From NCBI GenBank assembly GCA_946405485.1, contig CAMJHJ010000023.1, forward strand, positions 1 to 17,084: DNA of 17,084 bases, given 5' to 3'. Position numbers and translations under genes: made by a program. Under the pieces are notes generated by a model, which saw only the letters and a list, made by a program, of their open reading frames with translations, had not been told where the DNA came from and did no database searches. Source of the stretch: an uncultured Bacteroidales bacterium. GTDB taxonomy: Bacteria > Bacteroidota > Bacteroidia > Bacteroidales > UBA932. Below, piece by piece: positions 196 to 16,745 of this stretch (the stretch's first letter is position 1; each line of letters opens with the position of its first letter).

Positions 196-208
196 GCGCT
201 GATCCTGC

Positions 209-290
209 GACAAAGCGACTGTCCCTTCAAGGCAGCAGCAATTTTAACCCCTTCGGGGGAATGCTGCCTTGAAGGGACAGTCGTTTTGTC
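209..290 (+). repeat. Long palindromic element, copy A (UUCG-capped hairpin)
   Basis: Bases 209-237 pair with 262-290 over 29 bp; the only imperfection is a G.U pair (215 with 284). The 24-nt loop 238-261 contains a second small hairpin, CCCC-TTCG-GGGG at 248-259, a UUCG tetraloop with the favoured C-G closing pair. The arms contain CTGT (219-222), an 8-nt segment (223-230) and GGCAGCA (231-237), mirrored on the other side. The same blocks with a different 8-nt segment recur at 12035-12118. Copy A lies between the enolase stop and the convergent L,D-transpeptidase gene, with a TTTT run at 284-287 inside its right arm. It could act as a terminator for either gene, but its length, block structure and second copy inside a coding region suggest a dispersed element, not a simple terminator. 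Confidence 0.9.
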
Positions 291-350
291 TTTCGGACGC
301 TCAGAATGCATTCCAAAGTGCCCACAGTGGCTTTATCATCTGGCGCGGCT

Positions 351-1001
351 TCAGTGGATGACGACGCGGAGGCCGGGGTGGCACGTCTCGAGGATGCGGC
401 GCATGAACGCCTCATCGACCGCGATGCAACCGCCGGTCCAGGCTTTTGATCCCTTGCAATGGAAAAAGATAGCTGAACCGTCGGGGTAGCGGCATTCGGG
501 GTTGAAGTCCAGCGCCATTCCGTAATTGTATTGCGGCGCCGTGTGGAACATGTCTTCGCCGCGGCAAGGGTGATGTGTCGCGGCCGTGTCGATGATGCGG
601 TTGTACCAGGGGCCTTCTTCGTCGCAGGCGAAGATGCTTTCCGTGACGGGGAGCCAGGGGAGTGCGGTGCCCGGATCGGGAAGGATGCCAAAGGCCGTGA
701 GGATGCCGAAGTCGCCTTCCGGCGTCATGGCGTCGCCCTCGCGGGTTTTGCCGAGCCCGTTCTTTCCGATGAAAGCGTCTGTCTCTGAGACAAGTTTCCA
801 TTTCCTAACGCCCGCCTTGGCATAATACCGCACGGTGGCGTTGCTGCCTTCCGCAGATTGGACCAGCAGCAGCTCATGGACGGCATCATCGCCGGAATAT
901 TGCTTCAGGACCGAACTCCAAGGCTCGGATTCACGGGGCCCGCAAGCGGCCAAAAACAGTGCCGATGCGAGGAGGGTGAGGGACAGGTAAAGCTGTTTCA
1001 T
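351..1001 (-). CDS. L,D-transpeptidase (YkuD) family lipoprotein
   Basis: A 216-residue protein with a Sec signal ending in a lipobox (L17-A-A-C20), so probably an envelope lipoprotein. The C-terminal half has the YkuD catalytic signature: His181 in FFHCKG and the cysteine nucleophile Cys192 in WTGGCIAV, with the glycine pair just before it. The family makes 3-3 cross-links in peptidoglycan or attaches proteins to it; some members have other roles, so the substrate here is inferred. MTPEGDFGIL near the middle fits the family's 'P-x-G-x-(F/Y)' lead-in to the fold. Gene is convergent to enolase and divergent from the metH-like gene. The start at 999-1001 is supported by the signal peptide and by a -7 box TACATTTG at 1028-1021. 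Confidence 0.85.
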   Translation of the reverse strand: MKQLYLSLTLLASALFLAACGPRESEPWSSVLKQYSGDDAVHELLLVQSAEGSNATVRYYAKAGVRKWKLVSETDAFIGKNGLGKTREGDAMTPEGDFGILTAFGILPDPGTALPWLPVTESIFACDEEGPWYNRIIDTAATHHPCRGEDMFHTAPQYNYGMALDFNPECRYPDGSAIFFHCKGSKAWTGGCIAVDEAFMRRILETCHPGLRVVIH

Positions 1002-1077: not shown

Positions 1078-2562
1078 ATGGCAGAGTTTTCCCGTTTTTG
1101 CATCGATGTTTTGCGTGAGCGCGTCCTCCGGCTGGATGGCGCGATGGGCACGCAGATCCAGTCTTTCGCCCTGTCGGAAATGGATTTCCGGAAGGGGCTT
1201 CCAACGGATCCGACGCGCGATGTGAAAGGCGACAACGAGTGCCTGAATCTTTCGCGTCCGGACGTGATCCGGGCCATCCACCAGTCTTATGTGGAGGCGG
1301 GGGCTGACATCATCGAAACCAACAGTTTCGGCGCCAATGCCATCGTCCAGCAAGATTACGGCCTTGCCGCCGTGGCCCCTCAGATGGCATTTGAGGCGGC
1401 CCGCCTGGCCCGTGAGGTAGCGGATGCCGCACCACGCAAGGTCTGGGTGGCCGGCAGCATGGGGCCGACCTCCAAGTCCCTTTCCCTGGTGTCGGATTTC
1501 CTTCGCCCGGAATGGCGTCCCTGCAGTTTCGATGAAATGGCCGCCGCATATGAGGCGCAGGCCCGCTCGCTGATCGAGGGCGGCGTGGACCTGATCCTGA
1601 TTGAGACTTGTTTCGATGCACTCAATGCCAAGGCGGCCCTGTACGCTGTCGAACAGGTGCGCCCTGCTTTCCCGGTCATCGTTTCCGTATCCGTCAGCAA
1701 CGGTTTCGGACGGACCCTGACCGGGCAGAGCCTGGAAGCATTCTATACCGCCGTTTCACGCCCGAACCTGGTGGCCTTCGGCCTTAATTGTTCGATGGGC
1801 GCGGAAGGGCTCATCCCGCTCATCCGGGACCTTGCCGGGTGGTGCCCCGTTCCGATCATCTGCTATCCCAACGCCGGCCTGCCCAATGCGCAGGGCGGCT
1901 ATGATGAGACGCCGGAAACGATGGCCGGCCATATGGCCGGACTGGACACTCTGGTCAATATCATGGGTGGGTGTTGCGGCACGACACCGGAGCATATCCG
2001 GGCCTTGCCCAGCTTGCGACCGCGACCGATACCTTCGCCTTACAATGACTTGAAAGTTAGTGGATTGGAGGCGTGGACCGTAAGCGATCCTTCCGATTGC
2101 GTTTCGCCCGACCTGACCGAGCTGATCACCCGTCAGGAATACGACGAAGCGCTGATGCTTGCCGGGGAAGAGGTCGCTTCCGGCGCCGCGCTTCTGGACA
2201 TCAAGCTGGATGCCCTTCCGGATCCGGCTCCGGAGATGGAACGTTTCGTCCGTCTGACGCAGGGAGACCCCTCAGTCTCCTGTGCCGCCCTGATGATTGA
2301 TTCCGATGATTGGGAGACGCTCCTGAACGGGCTCAAGAACGCCCAGGGCAAGTGCATCGCACGCGCCATTGGTCTGAAGGACGGAGAATCGGCTTTCCTC
2401 GAGAAAGCATCCGTCATCCGCAGCCTGGGGGCCGCGATGGTGGTGAAACTTGAAGGGGCTGATGATCAGGAAAAGGCGCTCCGCCTGCTGGAAGGGATCG
2501 GCTTCCCTCCGGCGGACATCATTTTTGAGCGGGACCGAACACTTTGTCTATCAATCCGGTAA
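1078..2562 (+). CDS. MetH-like homocysteine S-methyltransferase with degenerate, truncated pterin domain
   Basis: A 494-residue protein. Residues about 10-320 match the homocysteine-binding module of cobalamin-dependent methionine synthase: LDGAMGT near the N-terminus, DIIETNSFGAN, and the three zinc-binding cysteines Cys238 (GLNCS) and Cys299/Cys300 (GGCCGTTPEHI). Residues about 340-485 resemble the first part of the folate-binding (pterin) domain: EYDEAL, MIDSDDWE, GFPPADIIF. But the usual GERTN and NVNMDEG motifs are missing or replaced, and homology stops in mid-domain. No cobalamin-binding or reactivation domain follows; full MetH is about 900-1200 residues. The ORF ends 44 nt inside the convergent HD gene. 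It may use a methyl donor other than methyl-folate/B12, work with a separately encoded partner, or be decaying. The SAM-cycle gene luxS lies nearby. Confidence 0.8.
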   Translation: MAEFSRFCIDVLRERVLRLDGAMGTQIQSFALSEMDFRKGLPTDPTRDVKGDNECLNLSRPDVIRAIHQSYVEAGADIIETNSFGANAIVQQDYGLAAVAPQMAFEAARLAREVADAAPRKVWVAGSMGPTSKSLSLVSDFLRPEWRPCSFDEMAAAYEAQARSLIEGGVDLILIETCFDALNAKAALYAVEQVRPAFPVIVSVSVSNGFGRTLTGQSLEAFYTAVSRPNLVAFGLNCSMGAEGLIPLIRDLAGWCPVPIICYPNAGLPNAQGGYDETPETMAGHMAGLDTLVNIMGGCCGTTPEHIRALPSLRPRPIPSPYNDLKVSGLEAWTVSDPSDCVSPDLTELITRQEYDEALMLAGEEVASGAALLDIKLDALPDPAPEMERFVRLTQGDPSVSCAALMIDSDDWETLLNGLKNAQGKCIARAIGLKDGESAFLEKASVIRSLGAAMVVKLEGADDQEKALRLLEGIGFPPADIIFERDRTLCLSIR

Positions 2563-3109
2563 ATTCCTGGTAGGCATCCGTATCTTCCAATTCGGCCAGG
2601 GAAGACGCCAGGCCGTGGTAGTGCCATGCATGGTCGGCCTTGCCGCCCGGGGCATGGAAGATATGCCATAACGCATCTCCCTTGACGCGGTAATCGCGGG
2701 CGATGGCCCGCATGTTGGAAAGCTTGTCTCCCAGCGCGACCATTTTCGCTTCGCGGGAAGCGGCGGCGAGCCGGTCGATGGCGGCCTGCTTGCGCTCACG
2801 CCAGGTTTTCTCCCTGCCATCCTCCGCCAGCAAGATATCCGTCTCCGCCTCGACCAGGGAGGCAACCCGGGGGCCGAAACGCTTCCGGATTTGTTCCGGC
2901 GTCACGTCGGTATCCTCTACCGTGTCGTGCAGGGCTGCTGCAGCTAGAAGCTCCGGATCGGAGGTCATCGTCGCGACGATCGCCATCGCCTCCAGGACAT
3001 GGATCACATAGGGGAATCCTTTGCCGCGGCGCTCGGTGCCCGCATGCGCGTCTACGGCGAAGCGGATCGCCTCGTCGACCAGGGTCGTGTCAAGTGGATG
3101 ATTGGCCAT
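2519..3109 (-). CDS. Single-domain ppGpp hydrolase (RelA/SpoT-type HD, small alarmone hydrolase)
   Basis: A 196-residue protein with the HD fold of the RelA/SpoT/MESH1 hydrolases, which remove the 3'-pyrophosphate of (p)ppGpp with Mn2+. Visible metal and active-site residues are His37 (PYVIH), His61-Asp62 and Glu65-Asp66 in ALHDTVEDT, and Asp128 in ALGDKLSNM. There is no synthetase, TGS or ACT domain, and the length fits a stand-alone hydrolase. The frame stays open far upstream (to 3559), but that part is the shadow of luxS. ATG 3109-3107 is preferred because a -7 box TACATTTG lies 17 nt upstream and covers the next upstream ATG. A nucleotide other than ppGpp as substrate cannot be excluded. 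The 3' end overlaps the metH-like ORF by 44 bp, tail to tail. Confidence 0.85.
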   Translation of the reverse strand: MANHPLDTTLVDEAIRFAVDAHAGTERRGKGFPYVIHVLEAMAIVATMTSDPELLAAAALHDTVEDTDVTPEQIRKRFGPRVASLVEAETDILLAEDGREKTWRERKQAAIDRLAAASREAKMVALGDKLSNMRAIARDYRVKGDALWHIFHAPGGKADHAWHYHGLASSLAELEDTDAYQEFTGLIDKVFGPAQK

Positions 3110-3126
3110 TTCGTTCGTTTGGTTTT

Positions 3127-3134
3127 CAAATGTA
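3127..3134 (-). promoter_or_regulatory. -7 box for the ppGpp hydrolase gene
   Basis: The minus strand reads TACATTTG from 3134 to 3127, an exact TAnnTTTG match, 17 nt before the chosen ATG. It is identical to the L,D-transpeptidase box. Together with the luxS box at 3158-3165 it forms a divergent promoter pair. Confidence 0.6.
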
Positions 3135-3157
3135 AGCATTTTTTGTCGAAATCTTCC

Positions 3158-3165
3158 TACCTTCG
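3158..3165 (+). promoter_or_regulatory. -7 box for luxS, directly abutting the start codon
   Basis: TACCTTCG matches TAnnTTyG. Only four bases (3166-3169) separate it from the ATG at 3170, so transcription would begin at or within a few bases of the start codon. A TTTG at 3142-3145 is closer (12 bp) than the usual 19 bp spacing, so the -33 box is uncertain. Confidence 0.55.
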
Positions 3166-3169
3166 CAGT

Positions 3170-3652
3170 ATGAAGAAGATTCCCAGTTTCACCATCGACC
3201 ATCTCCGCCTGTTGCGCGGCATCTATGTTTCCCGTAAAGACCAGGTCGGGGGAGAGGTCGTCACGACCTTTGACATCCGGATGAAAGAGCCCAACCGCGA
3301 ACCCGCCTTGGGACAGGGTGCGATCCATACGATCGAGCATCTCGCAGCCACCTATCTGCGAAACGATCCGCAATGGGGTGACCGTATCGTTTATTGGGGG
3401 CCGATGGGCTGCCTGACCGGAAACTACCTGCTGATGCGCGGAGATTTGCAGCCGGAGGATATCCTGCCCTTGATGCGGGATACCTTCCGATTTGTAGCCG
3501 GCTATGAAGGTGAGGTACCCGGCGCTGCACCTTCGGACTGCGGCAACTGGCTCCTGCATGATCTGCCGATGGCCCGCTACGAGGCGGAAAAGTATTTGCG
3601 TGAGGTTTTGGAAGTGATCCGTCCGGAGAACTTGCGATATCCGGAGAAATAA
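3170..3652 (+). CDS. luxS: S-ribosylhomocysteine lyase LuxS
   Basis: A 160-residue protein of normal LuxS length. LuxS cleaves S-ribosylhomocysteine into homocysteine and DPD, the precursor of autoinducer-2, in the cytoplasmic activated-methyl cycle. The metal site is complete: His53 and His57 with catalytic Glu56 in HTIEHL, and Cys124 in SDCGNW. The catalytic Cys81 lies in GPMGC. Beside it, the usual GPMGCRTGFY reads GPMGCLTGNY, with Arg changed to Leu and Phe to Asn. The start at 3170 gives the expected N-terminus (MKKIPSFTIDH); the frame is open upstream but matches nothing. A short weak stem at 3660-3676 follows the stop. Homocysteine made here could be a substrate of the MetH-like protein two genes away. 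Confidence 0.96.
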   Translation: MKKIPSFTIDHLRLLRGIYVSRKDQVGGEVVTTFDIRMKEPNREPALGQGAIHTIEHLAATYLRNDPQWGDRIVYWGPMGCLTGNYLLMRGDLQPEDILPLMRDTFRFVAGYEGEVPGAAPSDCGNWLLHDLPMARYEAEKYLREVLEVIRPENLRYPEK

Positions 3653-11923: not shown

Positions 11924-12924
11924 GGCTCGAAGTCGGGATCGACGTAGTTGTAGAGGCTGGCGACGACGTTGGCGCTGAATTGATGGGCGACTGGGACGAT
12001 GCGGTCCCAGTCGCTTTTTGTCAGCTGCAGGGCCGGCCCAGATGCCTGTGCGGTTTGGGCAGCAGAGACTCTAACCCCTTCGGGGGAATGCTGCCCAAAC
12101 CGCACAGGCACATGGGCCTTCGCAGGCGGACAGGCAGTCGATACTAAGGCGTAAACCGTGCCGGCGTTGAAGTTGTCGCCGGCACCGATCGTGGAGACGA
12201 CCGGGGTATCCTGGGGGACCGGGTAGATCCCATGGGCGCCGGGAGAAAAAACCTCCGTCTCGCGGGCGCCTTTCGTGCAGATGAAGTTCGGGCAGCGCGG
12301 GGCGATGTGCTCCGCATACACCTTCGCCGCATCAGTGGAGCCATACAGGGCCTCGATGTCTTCGGAGGAGCCCCGTACGATGTCGCTCAGGGCGATGTTT
12401 TCCTCGATCTGCGGCAGGGAATCCGCGGCGTTGTGGTTCTTCCTGAAATTGATGTCATAATAGACGACGGCGCCCGCTTCACGTGCCTGCCGGATCAGGG
12501 CGCGCGTCTGCTCCCGGGTCTCCGGATTGATGGCGAAGAAGGAGCCGAAAAGGACGATGTCGCCGGGTCCGAAGTTCAGCGCAGGCGCCTGGAAAGCCGG
12601 GAGGGTGCGGTCCCGGAAGAATTCATAATGGGCATTGCTTTTCTCGTCCAGCAGGGCCAGCGAAACGGTGCTCTGGCCGGGAGAACGAACCAGGGCCTCG
12701 TCAGAGAGACGGTTCTCTTTCATGAATGCGGTGACGATGTCCGCCACCGGATCGTCACCGGTCTGCGTGACCATGCGCAGCGCTATTTCCGGGCACTTGC
12801 GCCCGACAGTGCGGCCCAGGGAAATCATGGCGTTGAAAGTGGATCCGCCCGGGACGGCGGCCTGGGGCTGCCCGCCCCGGAAAACGATGTCGAGGACGGT
12901 CTCCCCGATGCCGGTGATGCTCAT
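11920..12924 (-). CDS. PfkB/ribokinase-family sugar kinase carrying an in-frame palindromic insertion
   Basis: A 334-residue cytoplasmic kinase of the PfkB family. Visible are the N-terminal ITGIGETVLDI strand, the GGSTFNAMISLGR substrate region, and the ATP/catalytic motif Gly247-Ala-Gly-Asp250-Asn-Phe-Asn, with Asp250 the catalytic base. The C-terminal W-x3-V and FSANVVASLYNYVD blocks are also in frame. The phosphorylated sugar is unknown; fructose or a related ketose is typical of relatives. Residues 269-297 do not belong to the fold: they are encoded by an 84-bp palindromic element and lengthen the segment between AGDNFNAG and the C-terminal helix from the usual 15 or so residues to about 44. 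The start lies 2 nt after the DUF1080-PHP stop, so the two are co-transcribed and probably coupled. Confidence 0.85.
   Translation of the reverse strand: MSITGIGETVLDIVFRGGQPQAAVPGGSTFNAMISLGRTVGRKCPEIALRMVTQTGDDPVADIVTAFMKENRLSDEALVRSPGQSTVSLALLDEKSNAHYEFFRDRTLPAFQAPALNFGPGDIVLFGSFFAINPETREQTRALIRQAREAGAVVYYDINFRKNHNAADSLPQIEENIALSDIVRGSSEDIEALYGSTDAAKVYAEHIAPRCPNFICTKGARETEVFSPGAHGIYPVPQDTPVVSTIGAGDNFNAGTVYALVSTACPPAKAHVPVRFGQHSPEGVRVSAAQTAQASGPALQLTKSDWDRIVPVAHQFSANVVASLYNYVDPDFEP
12035..12118 (+). repeat. Long palindromic element, copy B, inside the PfkB kinase gene
   Basis: Bases 12035-12064 pair with 12089-12118 over 30 positions with two adjacent mismatches. The 24-nt loop 12065-12088 ends in the same TAACCCC-TTCG-GGGGAA as copy A, with the UUCG-capped mini-hairpin at 12074-12085. 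CTGT (12046-12049), GGCAGCA (12058-12064) and their complements sit at the same distances as in copy A, but the 8-nt segment between them (12050-12057, GCGGTTTG) differs from copy A (CCCTTCAA) and is still perfectly paired. The element is 84 bp, exactly 28 codons, with no stop in the kinase frame. It is antisense to the kinase gene in the orientation used here. Confidence 0.9.
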
Positions 12925-16262: not shown

Positions 16263-16745
16263 CTAATACACGTAACGCACGGCGTGCCAGACCGCGAAGA
16301 ACTCTTCGATGGTGAGGTAACCGTCCACCGTGAAGAGGACGTCGCTCTGGAAGCTGCTGGTGCCCTCGTAGACTTTGCCGTCCCGGATCGTGGCCAGGAT
16401 ATCACTGGTGAAAGTGGACGTGCCCTTGTAGATCTTGCCGTCGCGGATTGTGAAAAGGATGTCGCGCTGGAAGTCGCTGGTGCCTTTATAGACCTTTCCG
16501 TCCCGGACCGTGTAAAGGACATCGCTGGTAAAACTGGATGTGCCTTTGAAGATCTGGTGGGACCGGACGGTGGCGATGACGTCGCTGGTGAAGCCGGAGG
16601 TCTTTTTGTAGACCTTTCCGTCCCGCACCGTGCAGATCACGTCACTGGTGAAGGAACTCGTGCCTTTATACACCCGCACCTCTGCCGCCGCCCCTCTCAC
16701 GGCGAAGGGCAGCAGGAGAAGCAGGGCCGTGAATAGCGCCTTCAT
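16263..16745 (-). CDS. Secreted protein of six tandem 20-residue repeats
   Basis: A 160-residue protein with a Sec signal (hydrophobic core 4-16, likely cut near Ala21) and no lipobox. Residues 20-139 are six consecutive 20-residue units with no linker. The consensus unit is V/I-R-D-G-K-V/I-Y-K-G-T-S-x-F-T-S-D-V/I-L-x-T; the first unit is degenerate at its start and the third has SHQIF instead of DGKVY. Each unit looks like two short beta strands with a turn, so a closed beta repeat fold is likely. The last 21 residues (VDGYLTIEEFFAVWHAVRYVY) are a non-repeat cap. I do not recognise a characterised family. The gene is 25 nt downstream of the ABM monooxygenase gene, with no promoter seen in between. 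Confidence 0.8.
   Translation of the reverse strand: MKALFTALLLLLPFAVRGAAAEVRVYKGTSSFTSDVICTVRDGKVYKKTSGFTSDVIATVRSHQIFKGTSSFTSDVLYTVRDGKVYKGTSDFQRDILFTIRDGKIYKGTSTFTSDILATIRDGKVYEGTSSFQSDVLFTVDGYLTIEEFFAVWHAVRYVY
16329..16688 (-). repeat. Six 60-bp tandem repeats within the secreted repeat protein gene
   Basis: The six 20-codon units occupy 16688 to 16329 in exact 60-bp steps. They are related at DNA level (recurring accttgccgtcc-like and gtcgctggt-like blocks on the plus strand) but diverged, so unit gain or loss has not been very recent. Confidence 0.85.

What the first reader, a model, noticed from the sequence alone, without database searches (positions are those of the whole stretch)
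12035..12118. Palindromic element inserted in frame inside a sugar kinase gene
Copy B is 84 bp (28 codons), stop-free in the kinase frame, and lies between the catalytic GAGDNFNAG motif and the conserved C-terminal W/FSANV block, where relatives have a short linker. The inserted peptide (about residues 269-297) resembles nothing in the PfkB fold. Protein-coding insertion of palindromes is established for Rickettsia palindromic elements; the same behaviour here would be a new case outside Rickettsiales. Because the whole stem is translated, the two arms encode unrelated peptides from complementary DNA.
Basis: partly seen in the sequence, partly recalled or inferred. Interest (0 to 1): 0.85.

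Follow-up and report, generated by a model that had tools for sequence, protein, structure and literature searches.

The report
Self-correcting DNA hairpin inside kinase gene
A short DNA palindrome sits in frame inside a bacterial sugar-kinase gene; it belongs to a family of repeats whose two arms change quickly yet stay complementary, which makes it a natural test case for how DNA replication keeps hairpins paired.

Summary
Window 12035-12118 is a palindrome in frame inside a PfkB kinase gene; more distant kinases have a short linker there. It is one of dozens of copies per genome of a family matched by no Rfam model and found in none of nine literature searches: a stem of about 29 bp whose sequence differs between copies, around a better conserved 22-28 nt loop. 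Three related Bacteroidales genomes are rich in it. At least 20 copies lie in Pfam-supported frames. At orthologous sites stems differ more by paired double changes than by one-sided ones (192 against 52 cells), and some loops are inverted between the same arms. Both are footprints of replication template switching. Mismatches are strand-biased (A.C 100, G.T 27), so one strand may fold in life. Kinase residues 269-296 are modelled as disordered. In-gene palindromes outside Rickettsiales are already published, so that novelty claim fails. What moves the element is unknown. No copy scores well beside a RAYT transposase gene, but hairpins flanking these genes have a similar plan. A new variant of a known kind.

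The parts
12035..12118 (+). Copy B: palindromic element inside the kinase gene (model match 12034-12119)
12035..12064 (+). Copy B, left arm
12089..12118 (+). Copy B, right arm
12075..12085 (+). Copy B, mini-hairpin CCCC-TTC-GGGG within the conserved loop
11920..12924 (-). PfkB-family carbohydrate kinase gene that carries copy B in frame (residues 269-297)
207..292 (+). Copy A: second member of the family, downstream of the YkuD-domain gene 351-1001(-)
   Evidence: a copy with opposite loop orientation sits at the matching site of G156

Best explanation
Copy B belongs to a family of short interspersed DNA palindromes of about 85 bp: a stem of about 29 bp of very variable sequence around a conserved loop of 22-28 nt. 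Copies lie between genes and, where the frame stays open, inside genes, where they become tolerated disordered linkers (presence in frame is shown; tolerance is inferred). Once in place the long hairpin is a hotspot for template switching in replication: one arm is recopied from the other, so changes end up in both arms, and the loop is sometimes inverted (inferred; both predicted footprints are seen). This explains how stems diverge yet stay paired inside genes where the hairpin has no obvious job. Copies are gained and lost often (shown at protein level). How new copies are made is unknown; a folded single-strand intermediate is my preferred guess, and a RAYT-type enzyme is possible.
For: Family and plan. 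On 26 copies 92.2% of cells pair against 58.8% in shuffles, and 286 cells have double changes against 81 (the alignment was chosen for paired copies). Ortholog sites: 22 pairs scored, 314 identical, 192 double, 52 one-sided, 14 other cells. Loop inversion with shared arms: DNA at L113/L146, 19 of 26 pairs identical; TruB P0124/P0132, core 254 of 259; PfkB P0007/P0010, core 241 of 258. In-frame in genes. Turnover: P0125/P0147, P0003/P0004. Known mechanism: PMC8604942 (abstract), PMC8794818 (abstract and one section).
Against: Only 6 of 22 ortholog pairs have stems clearly more alike than random copy pairs, so whole-element replacement can explain many of the others. In those 6 the tally is 27 double and 12 one-sided cells, and two of them (13-50, 24-84) have more one-sided than double changes. 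The strand bias of mismatches is not predicted by simple arm recopying. A single clear DNA-level inversion with shared arms; the others have diverged arms or are seen in protein only.
Confidence: 0.6

Rival explanations
1. Pairing is kept by selection on one folded strand (single-stranded DNA in transposition or replication, or an RNA), the complement of the strand drawn here; compensations arise one at a time.
For: Mismatches A.C 100, G.T 27 on the drawn strand, that is G.T-rich on its complement, whatever the direction of the host gene (16:6 and 11:1). Loop conserved; on the complement the mini-loop is G-N(1-2)-A in 87 of 93; that this suits stable DNA loops is recalled.
Against: Copies sit inside unrelated genes in both orientations. 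Loop inversion is not expected from selection on one strand. G.T is rare on the drawn strand, so an RNA of that strand is unlikely.
Confidence: 0.2
2. Origin and movement by RAYT (TnpA_REP) transposases: the element is a long, variable relative of the REP hairpins that flank RAYT genes.
For: Y1_Tnp proteins in G165 (5), G156 (1), G001 (1) (part of these below the curated cut-off). Hairpins beside several RAYT genes here are bounded by GCA...TGC with T-rich or A-rich loops, and one in G156 (L175) has loop GTTTTACCCCCTTTTAT between GGGAGC and GCTCCC, much like the element; likeness judged by eye. Bacteroidetes subclass 2.6 RAYTs have atypical hairpins (PMC6006769, passages). Copies in G165 often come in close pairs.
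Against: The family model gives only weak matches beside RAYT genes: L175 E 0.89, L176 (G059) E 0.008 and 0.011, none in the other 18 RAYT loci searched. The RAYT-side stems are mostly 9-15 bp and alike within a locus. No conserved end motif. G004 and G012 have Y1_Tnp genes but no family hit.
Confidence: 0.3
3. Repeated loss and re-insertion, or import by homologous recombination, at the same tolerant sites makes stems look hypervariable; each stem is static.
For: 16 of 22 ortholog pairs are not clearly more alike than random copies. P0003/P0004: 257 of 258 core residues identical but different inserts. Two close kinases without insert (P0012, P0016) have different borders, suggesting separate deletions.
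Against: TruB G001/G165 and L113/L146 keep part of the stem while changing other pairs on both sides. Within a genome I saw few near-copies that could be donors (one search list of similar pairs).
Confidence: 0.25

Closest known systems
Rickettsia palindromic elements (RPE)
   Same: Palindromes inserted in frame in unrelated genes (PMC10969869, passages seen)
   Different: RPEs are about 150 bp in ten families as described there; here about 85 bp, other phylum, stem sequence free. Sequence relation not tested.
REP / RAYT hairpins (GTAG and CGTC REPs; Bacteroidetes subclass 2.6 atypical hairpins)
   Same: Dispersed hairpins, some inside genes, often paired; RAYT genes present, and their flanking hairpins have a similar plan
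   Different: Tagged REPs have stems of 5-13 bp (GTAG) or 8-9 bp (CGTC) and a tag at the foot (PMC3733652, passages); here 29 bp and no end motif
Intragenic enterobacterial repeat units (RU-1, ERIC-like)
   Same: Short mobile repeats read through in genes (PMC2759123, abstract)
   Different: 103-168 bp units with conserved sequence; here the stem sequence is free
Template switching between inverted repeats (quasipalindromes)
   Same: Arm homogenisation and spacer inversion, also in coding DNA (PMC8604942, abstract; PMC8794818, abstract and section 7)
   Different: There scattered short repeats or RNA genes; here a dispersed family of one length with a conserved loop

Membership tests
Rickettsia palindromic element | in-frame insertion into unrelated coding genes | tested here: met
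   20 copies in 17 Pfam-supported ORFs
Rickettsia palindromic element | sequence homology to an RPE family | not tested
   no RPE sequence was compared
REP / RAYT | GTAG or CGTC type tag or other conserved motif at the hairpin foot | tested here: not met
   no enriched motif or column outside the stem in 91 copies (most frequent 6-mer 20 against shuffle maxima 10-16, a GC-rich word without fixed position)
REP / RAYT | element flanks a RAYT gene | tested here: inconclusive
   weak model matches beside two of 20 RAYT loci; similar-plan hairpins beside several
REP / RAYT | short stem (5-13 bp) | tested here: not met
   stem 28-32 bp in 60 of 94 parsed copies, median 28
MITE | target site duplication | tested here: inconclusive
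   sites too diverged to fix borders
Template-switching quasipalindrome | changes copied to both arms | tested here: met
   192 double against 52 one-sided cells in 22 ortholog pairs; 27 against 12 in the 6 with clearly related stems
Template-switching quasipalindrome | spacer inversion between the same arms | tested here: met
   DNA: one site with clearly shared arms; protein: TruB and PfkB

The most novel reading that the evidence does not exclude
A mobile element defined by shape and not by sequence: a RAYT-like or unknown machine recognises a conserved loop and a stem of measured length (about 29 bp) on one folded strand, so the stem sequence is free, and each copy is rebuilt as a near-perfect palindrome from one arm when it moves or replicates.
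Probability: 0.25. Interest if true: 0.88.

Novelty: new variant of a known kind. Interest (0 to 1): 0.7.

Why it matters
Compensatory changes in stems are usually read as proof of selection on RNA structure. Here dozens of copies, some inside genes and in either orientation, show heavy paired change together with loop inversions, which points to mutation mechanics. The family is a natural experiment on how far template switching alone can mimic structural selection, and a fast source of in-frame protein linkers and strain differences in uncultured Bacteroidales.

Tried and rejected
Target-derived arms: no 12-base word of an arm recurs in the rest of its own locus in 0 of 28 copies (shuffles give 0.45, so this is weak), and the short-linker kinases contain neither arm. 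Rfam: one match below its gathering score, mir-1000 on copy A, taken as a generic long hairpin. Core pattern: 0 viral contigs, two short chance-level plasmid matches, one genome contig. Survey: 19 of 400 genomes of the genus with model hits (at most 11 candidates scored per genome), high copy only in G001, G156, G165; 7 of 298 relatives at a stricter limit, largely the same genomes. Low-copy hits elsewhere include hairpins with a similar loop and a conserved stem. Outer end motif: none. MurB across genomes: the G156 row was on the wrong strand and is not used; G001 has a different insert there. Dropped rows: copy 32 was not parsed; copy 38 was parsed out of register, so pairs 38-74 and 1-38 were left out; stem tallies used 91 copies and 89. 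Pair 1-74 was matched on one flank only. Nine literature searches showed no description of this family; the library lacks most subscription papers.

Full report
Observation. The window holds two palindromes that share a core but not their outer arms: 209-290 and 12035-12118. The second folds far better than its shuffles (z -9.0) and lies in frame in a 334-residue PfkB kinase on the minus strand, between GAGDNFNAG and the FSANV block. In A1 (the window and 39 of 120 listed relatives) this segment is 40-77 residues in 18 of 40, 24-27 in 2 and 7-18 in 20. The AlphaFold model has mean pLDDT 87.1, with residues 269-296 below 50 between two helices. The insert is real and is modelled as a disordered linker.

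Family. An exact scan of genome contigs with the core gave one locus, in a goat abomasum Bacteroidales MAG. Its genome (G001) has 9 core matches at up to 3 mismatches, and G156 has 26 matches of a related core against 1 for the control pattern; not every match there is a hairpin. A covariance model from 26 copies gave 37 rows in G001, 52 in G156 and 44 in G165 at E 0.01; rows include palindromes matched on both strands. I worked with 95 copies: 33 of G165, 33 of G156 and 27 of G001 that lie in fetched stretches, and the two of the window. The stem ends sharply: 0.90 of copies pair at pair 27 and 0.20 at pair 31; 60 of 94 have a stem of 28-32 bp. No motif was found outside it. The loop is 22-28 nt; 93 of 94 have a C-run/G-run mini-hairpin and 86 of 93 end in AAT. 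Stems keep a weak common pattern: random copy pairs share 10.4 of 26 base pairs on average.

Copies in genes. I gave 30 ORFs that contain copies to Pfam, chosen for length, some as both strands of one place. Sixteen have domains: ROK, DUF4434 (two genomes), MFS, GH65, phosphoglucomutase, DnaX, FGE-sulfatase/BNR, polysaccharide synthesis, Mur ligase (three copies), MiaB-like, TruB (two genomes), GHMP kinase (two copies), amylase and MurB. With the window kinase that is 17 ORFs and 20 copies. By position several fall in linkers: before the DUF4434 domain, between FGE and BNR, after DnaX domain III. Near an N-terminus (ROK, GH65) the start codon is uncertain. Since the ORFs were selected, 20 of 95 is a lower bound and not a rate.

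Orthologous sites. Flank searches gave 61 comparisons with both flanks aligned: 42 occupied in the partner, 19 without a model hit. Stretches were chosen around copies and sites can count from both sides, so this is no occupancy rate. Some partners are empty; one keeps a shorter palindrome without the loop. TruB of G001 and G165 carries the element at the same place: of 30 pairs 18 are identical, 8 doubly changed, 4 one-sided. Over 22 ortholog pairs the tally is 314 identical, 192 double, 52 one-sided and 14 other cells; pairs share sequences, and unrelated copies would also differ by doubles. Only 6 of the 22 have stems clearly more alike than random copies (at 0.05): 113 identical, 27 double, 12 one-sided, 4 other. 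Among these, 13-50 and 24-84 have more one-sided than double changes. These facts keep the replacement rival alive.

Loop inversion. With flanks aligned, 9 of 24 copy pairings have the loop reversed. Three of these involve sites where G165 has two copies; the other six are five sites. Only L113/L146 (G165, G156) has clearly shared arms, 19 of 26 pairs. In protein data, TruB P0124 and P0132 agree in 254 of 259 core residues and share arm peptides, while the loop peptide changes from ILTPSGEC to FPRRGQSF, as expected if the loop is reverse-complemented. In A3 (G165, G001 and 37 of 120 listed TruB proteins) 19 are forward, 5 inverted and 15 without, by motif. PfkB P0007 and P0010 show the same, with 241 of 258 core residues alike. 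Arm homogenisation and spacer inversion are what template switching is reported to do in yeast genes (PMC8604942, abstract). For RNA genes the authors name compensatory change with loop inversion as the strongest possible support, and found it extremely rare (PMC8794818, section 7).

Turnover. TruB P0125 and P0147 differ in 2 of 259 core residues, one with and one without insert. Kinases P0003 and P0004 differ in 1 of 258 but have different inserts; recombination could explain that pair.

Strand bias. Among mismatches in the inner 26 pairs, A.C is 100 and G.T 27 on the drawn strand in 89 copies (106 and 30 in 91 copies). Forty-eight copies have more A.C and 13 more G.T, p about 8e-6 if copies were independent, which orthologs are not. 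In copies within Pfam-supported genes the bias is the same for either gene direction (16:6 in 11 copies, 11:1 in 7). This points to one folded strand, as ssDNA or RNA, or to strand-specific mismatch correction. On the complement the mini-loop is G-N(1-2)-A in 87 of 93; its fit to stable DNA loops is recalled.

RAYT. The three genomes hold Y1_Tnp proteins. The model found weak matches at 2 of 20 RAYT loci, L175 (G156) and L176 (G059). A closer look shows REP-like hairpins at many of these genes, with A- or T-rich loops bounded by GCA...TGC, and in L175 a loop GTTTTACCCCCTTTTAT between GGGAGC and GCTCCC, close to the element by eye. So kinship with RAYT hairpins is possible, although stem length, stem freedom and the missing end tag differ.

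Limits. Window genome not held. Insertion borders not fixed. Mobiliser unknown. The three genomes are MAGs.

Novelty. Palindromes inside genes are known in Rickettsia (PMC10969869, passages), in enterobacteria (PMC2759123, abstract) and for REPs in several species (PMC3733652, abstract and passages). A dispersed family with a stem of one length but free sequence, a conserved loop and loop inversion was not found in the nine searches named under Tried and rejected.

Noticed in passing
window 16263-16745 (-): 160-aa ORF made of tandem 60-bp (20-aa) repeats of the type DGKVYKGTSSFTSDVLYTV.
   Followed up: no
window 1078-2562 (+): Homocysteine S-methyltransferase ORF that stops inside the pterin-binding domain (profile 16-124 of 244): a shortened MetH-like protein or a frame break.
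   Followed up: no
L122 about 3080-3220; L189 1284-1320; L171 1895-1931: A second kind of palindrome, REP-like hairpins beside RAYT genes; one such motif also lies next to a copy of the element in G165.
   Followed up: partly
L070, L073, L077, L090, L102, L103 and others (G225, G177, G059): Low-copy hairpins with a similar loop but a conserved stem, several of them between ORFs that converge.
   Followed up: partly
L124, L130, L127 (G165); L136, L140 (G156): Five of 93 copies lie within 400 bases of a contig end, so assemblies may break at these palindromes.
   Followed up: partly
window 209-290 (-): Rfam mir-1000 match of 36.2 bits, below its gathering score of 50: most likely a generic long-hairpin match.
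   Followed up: no
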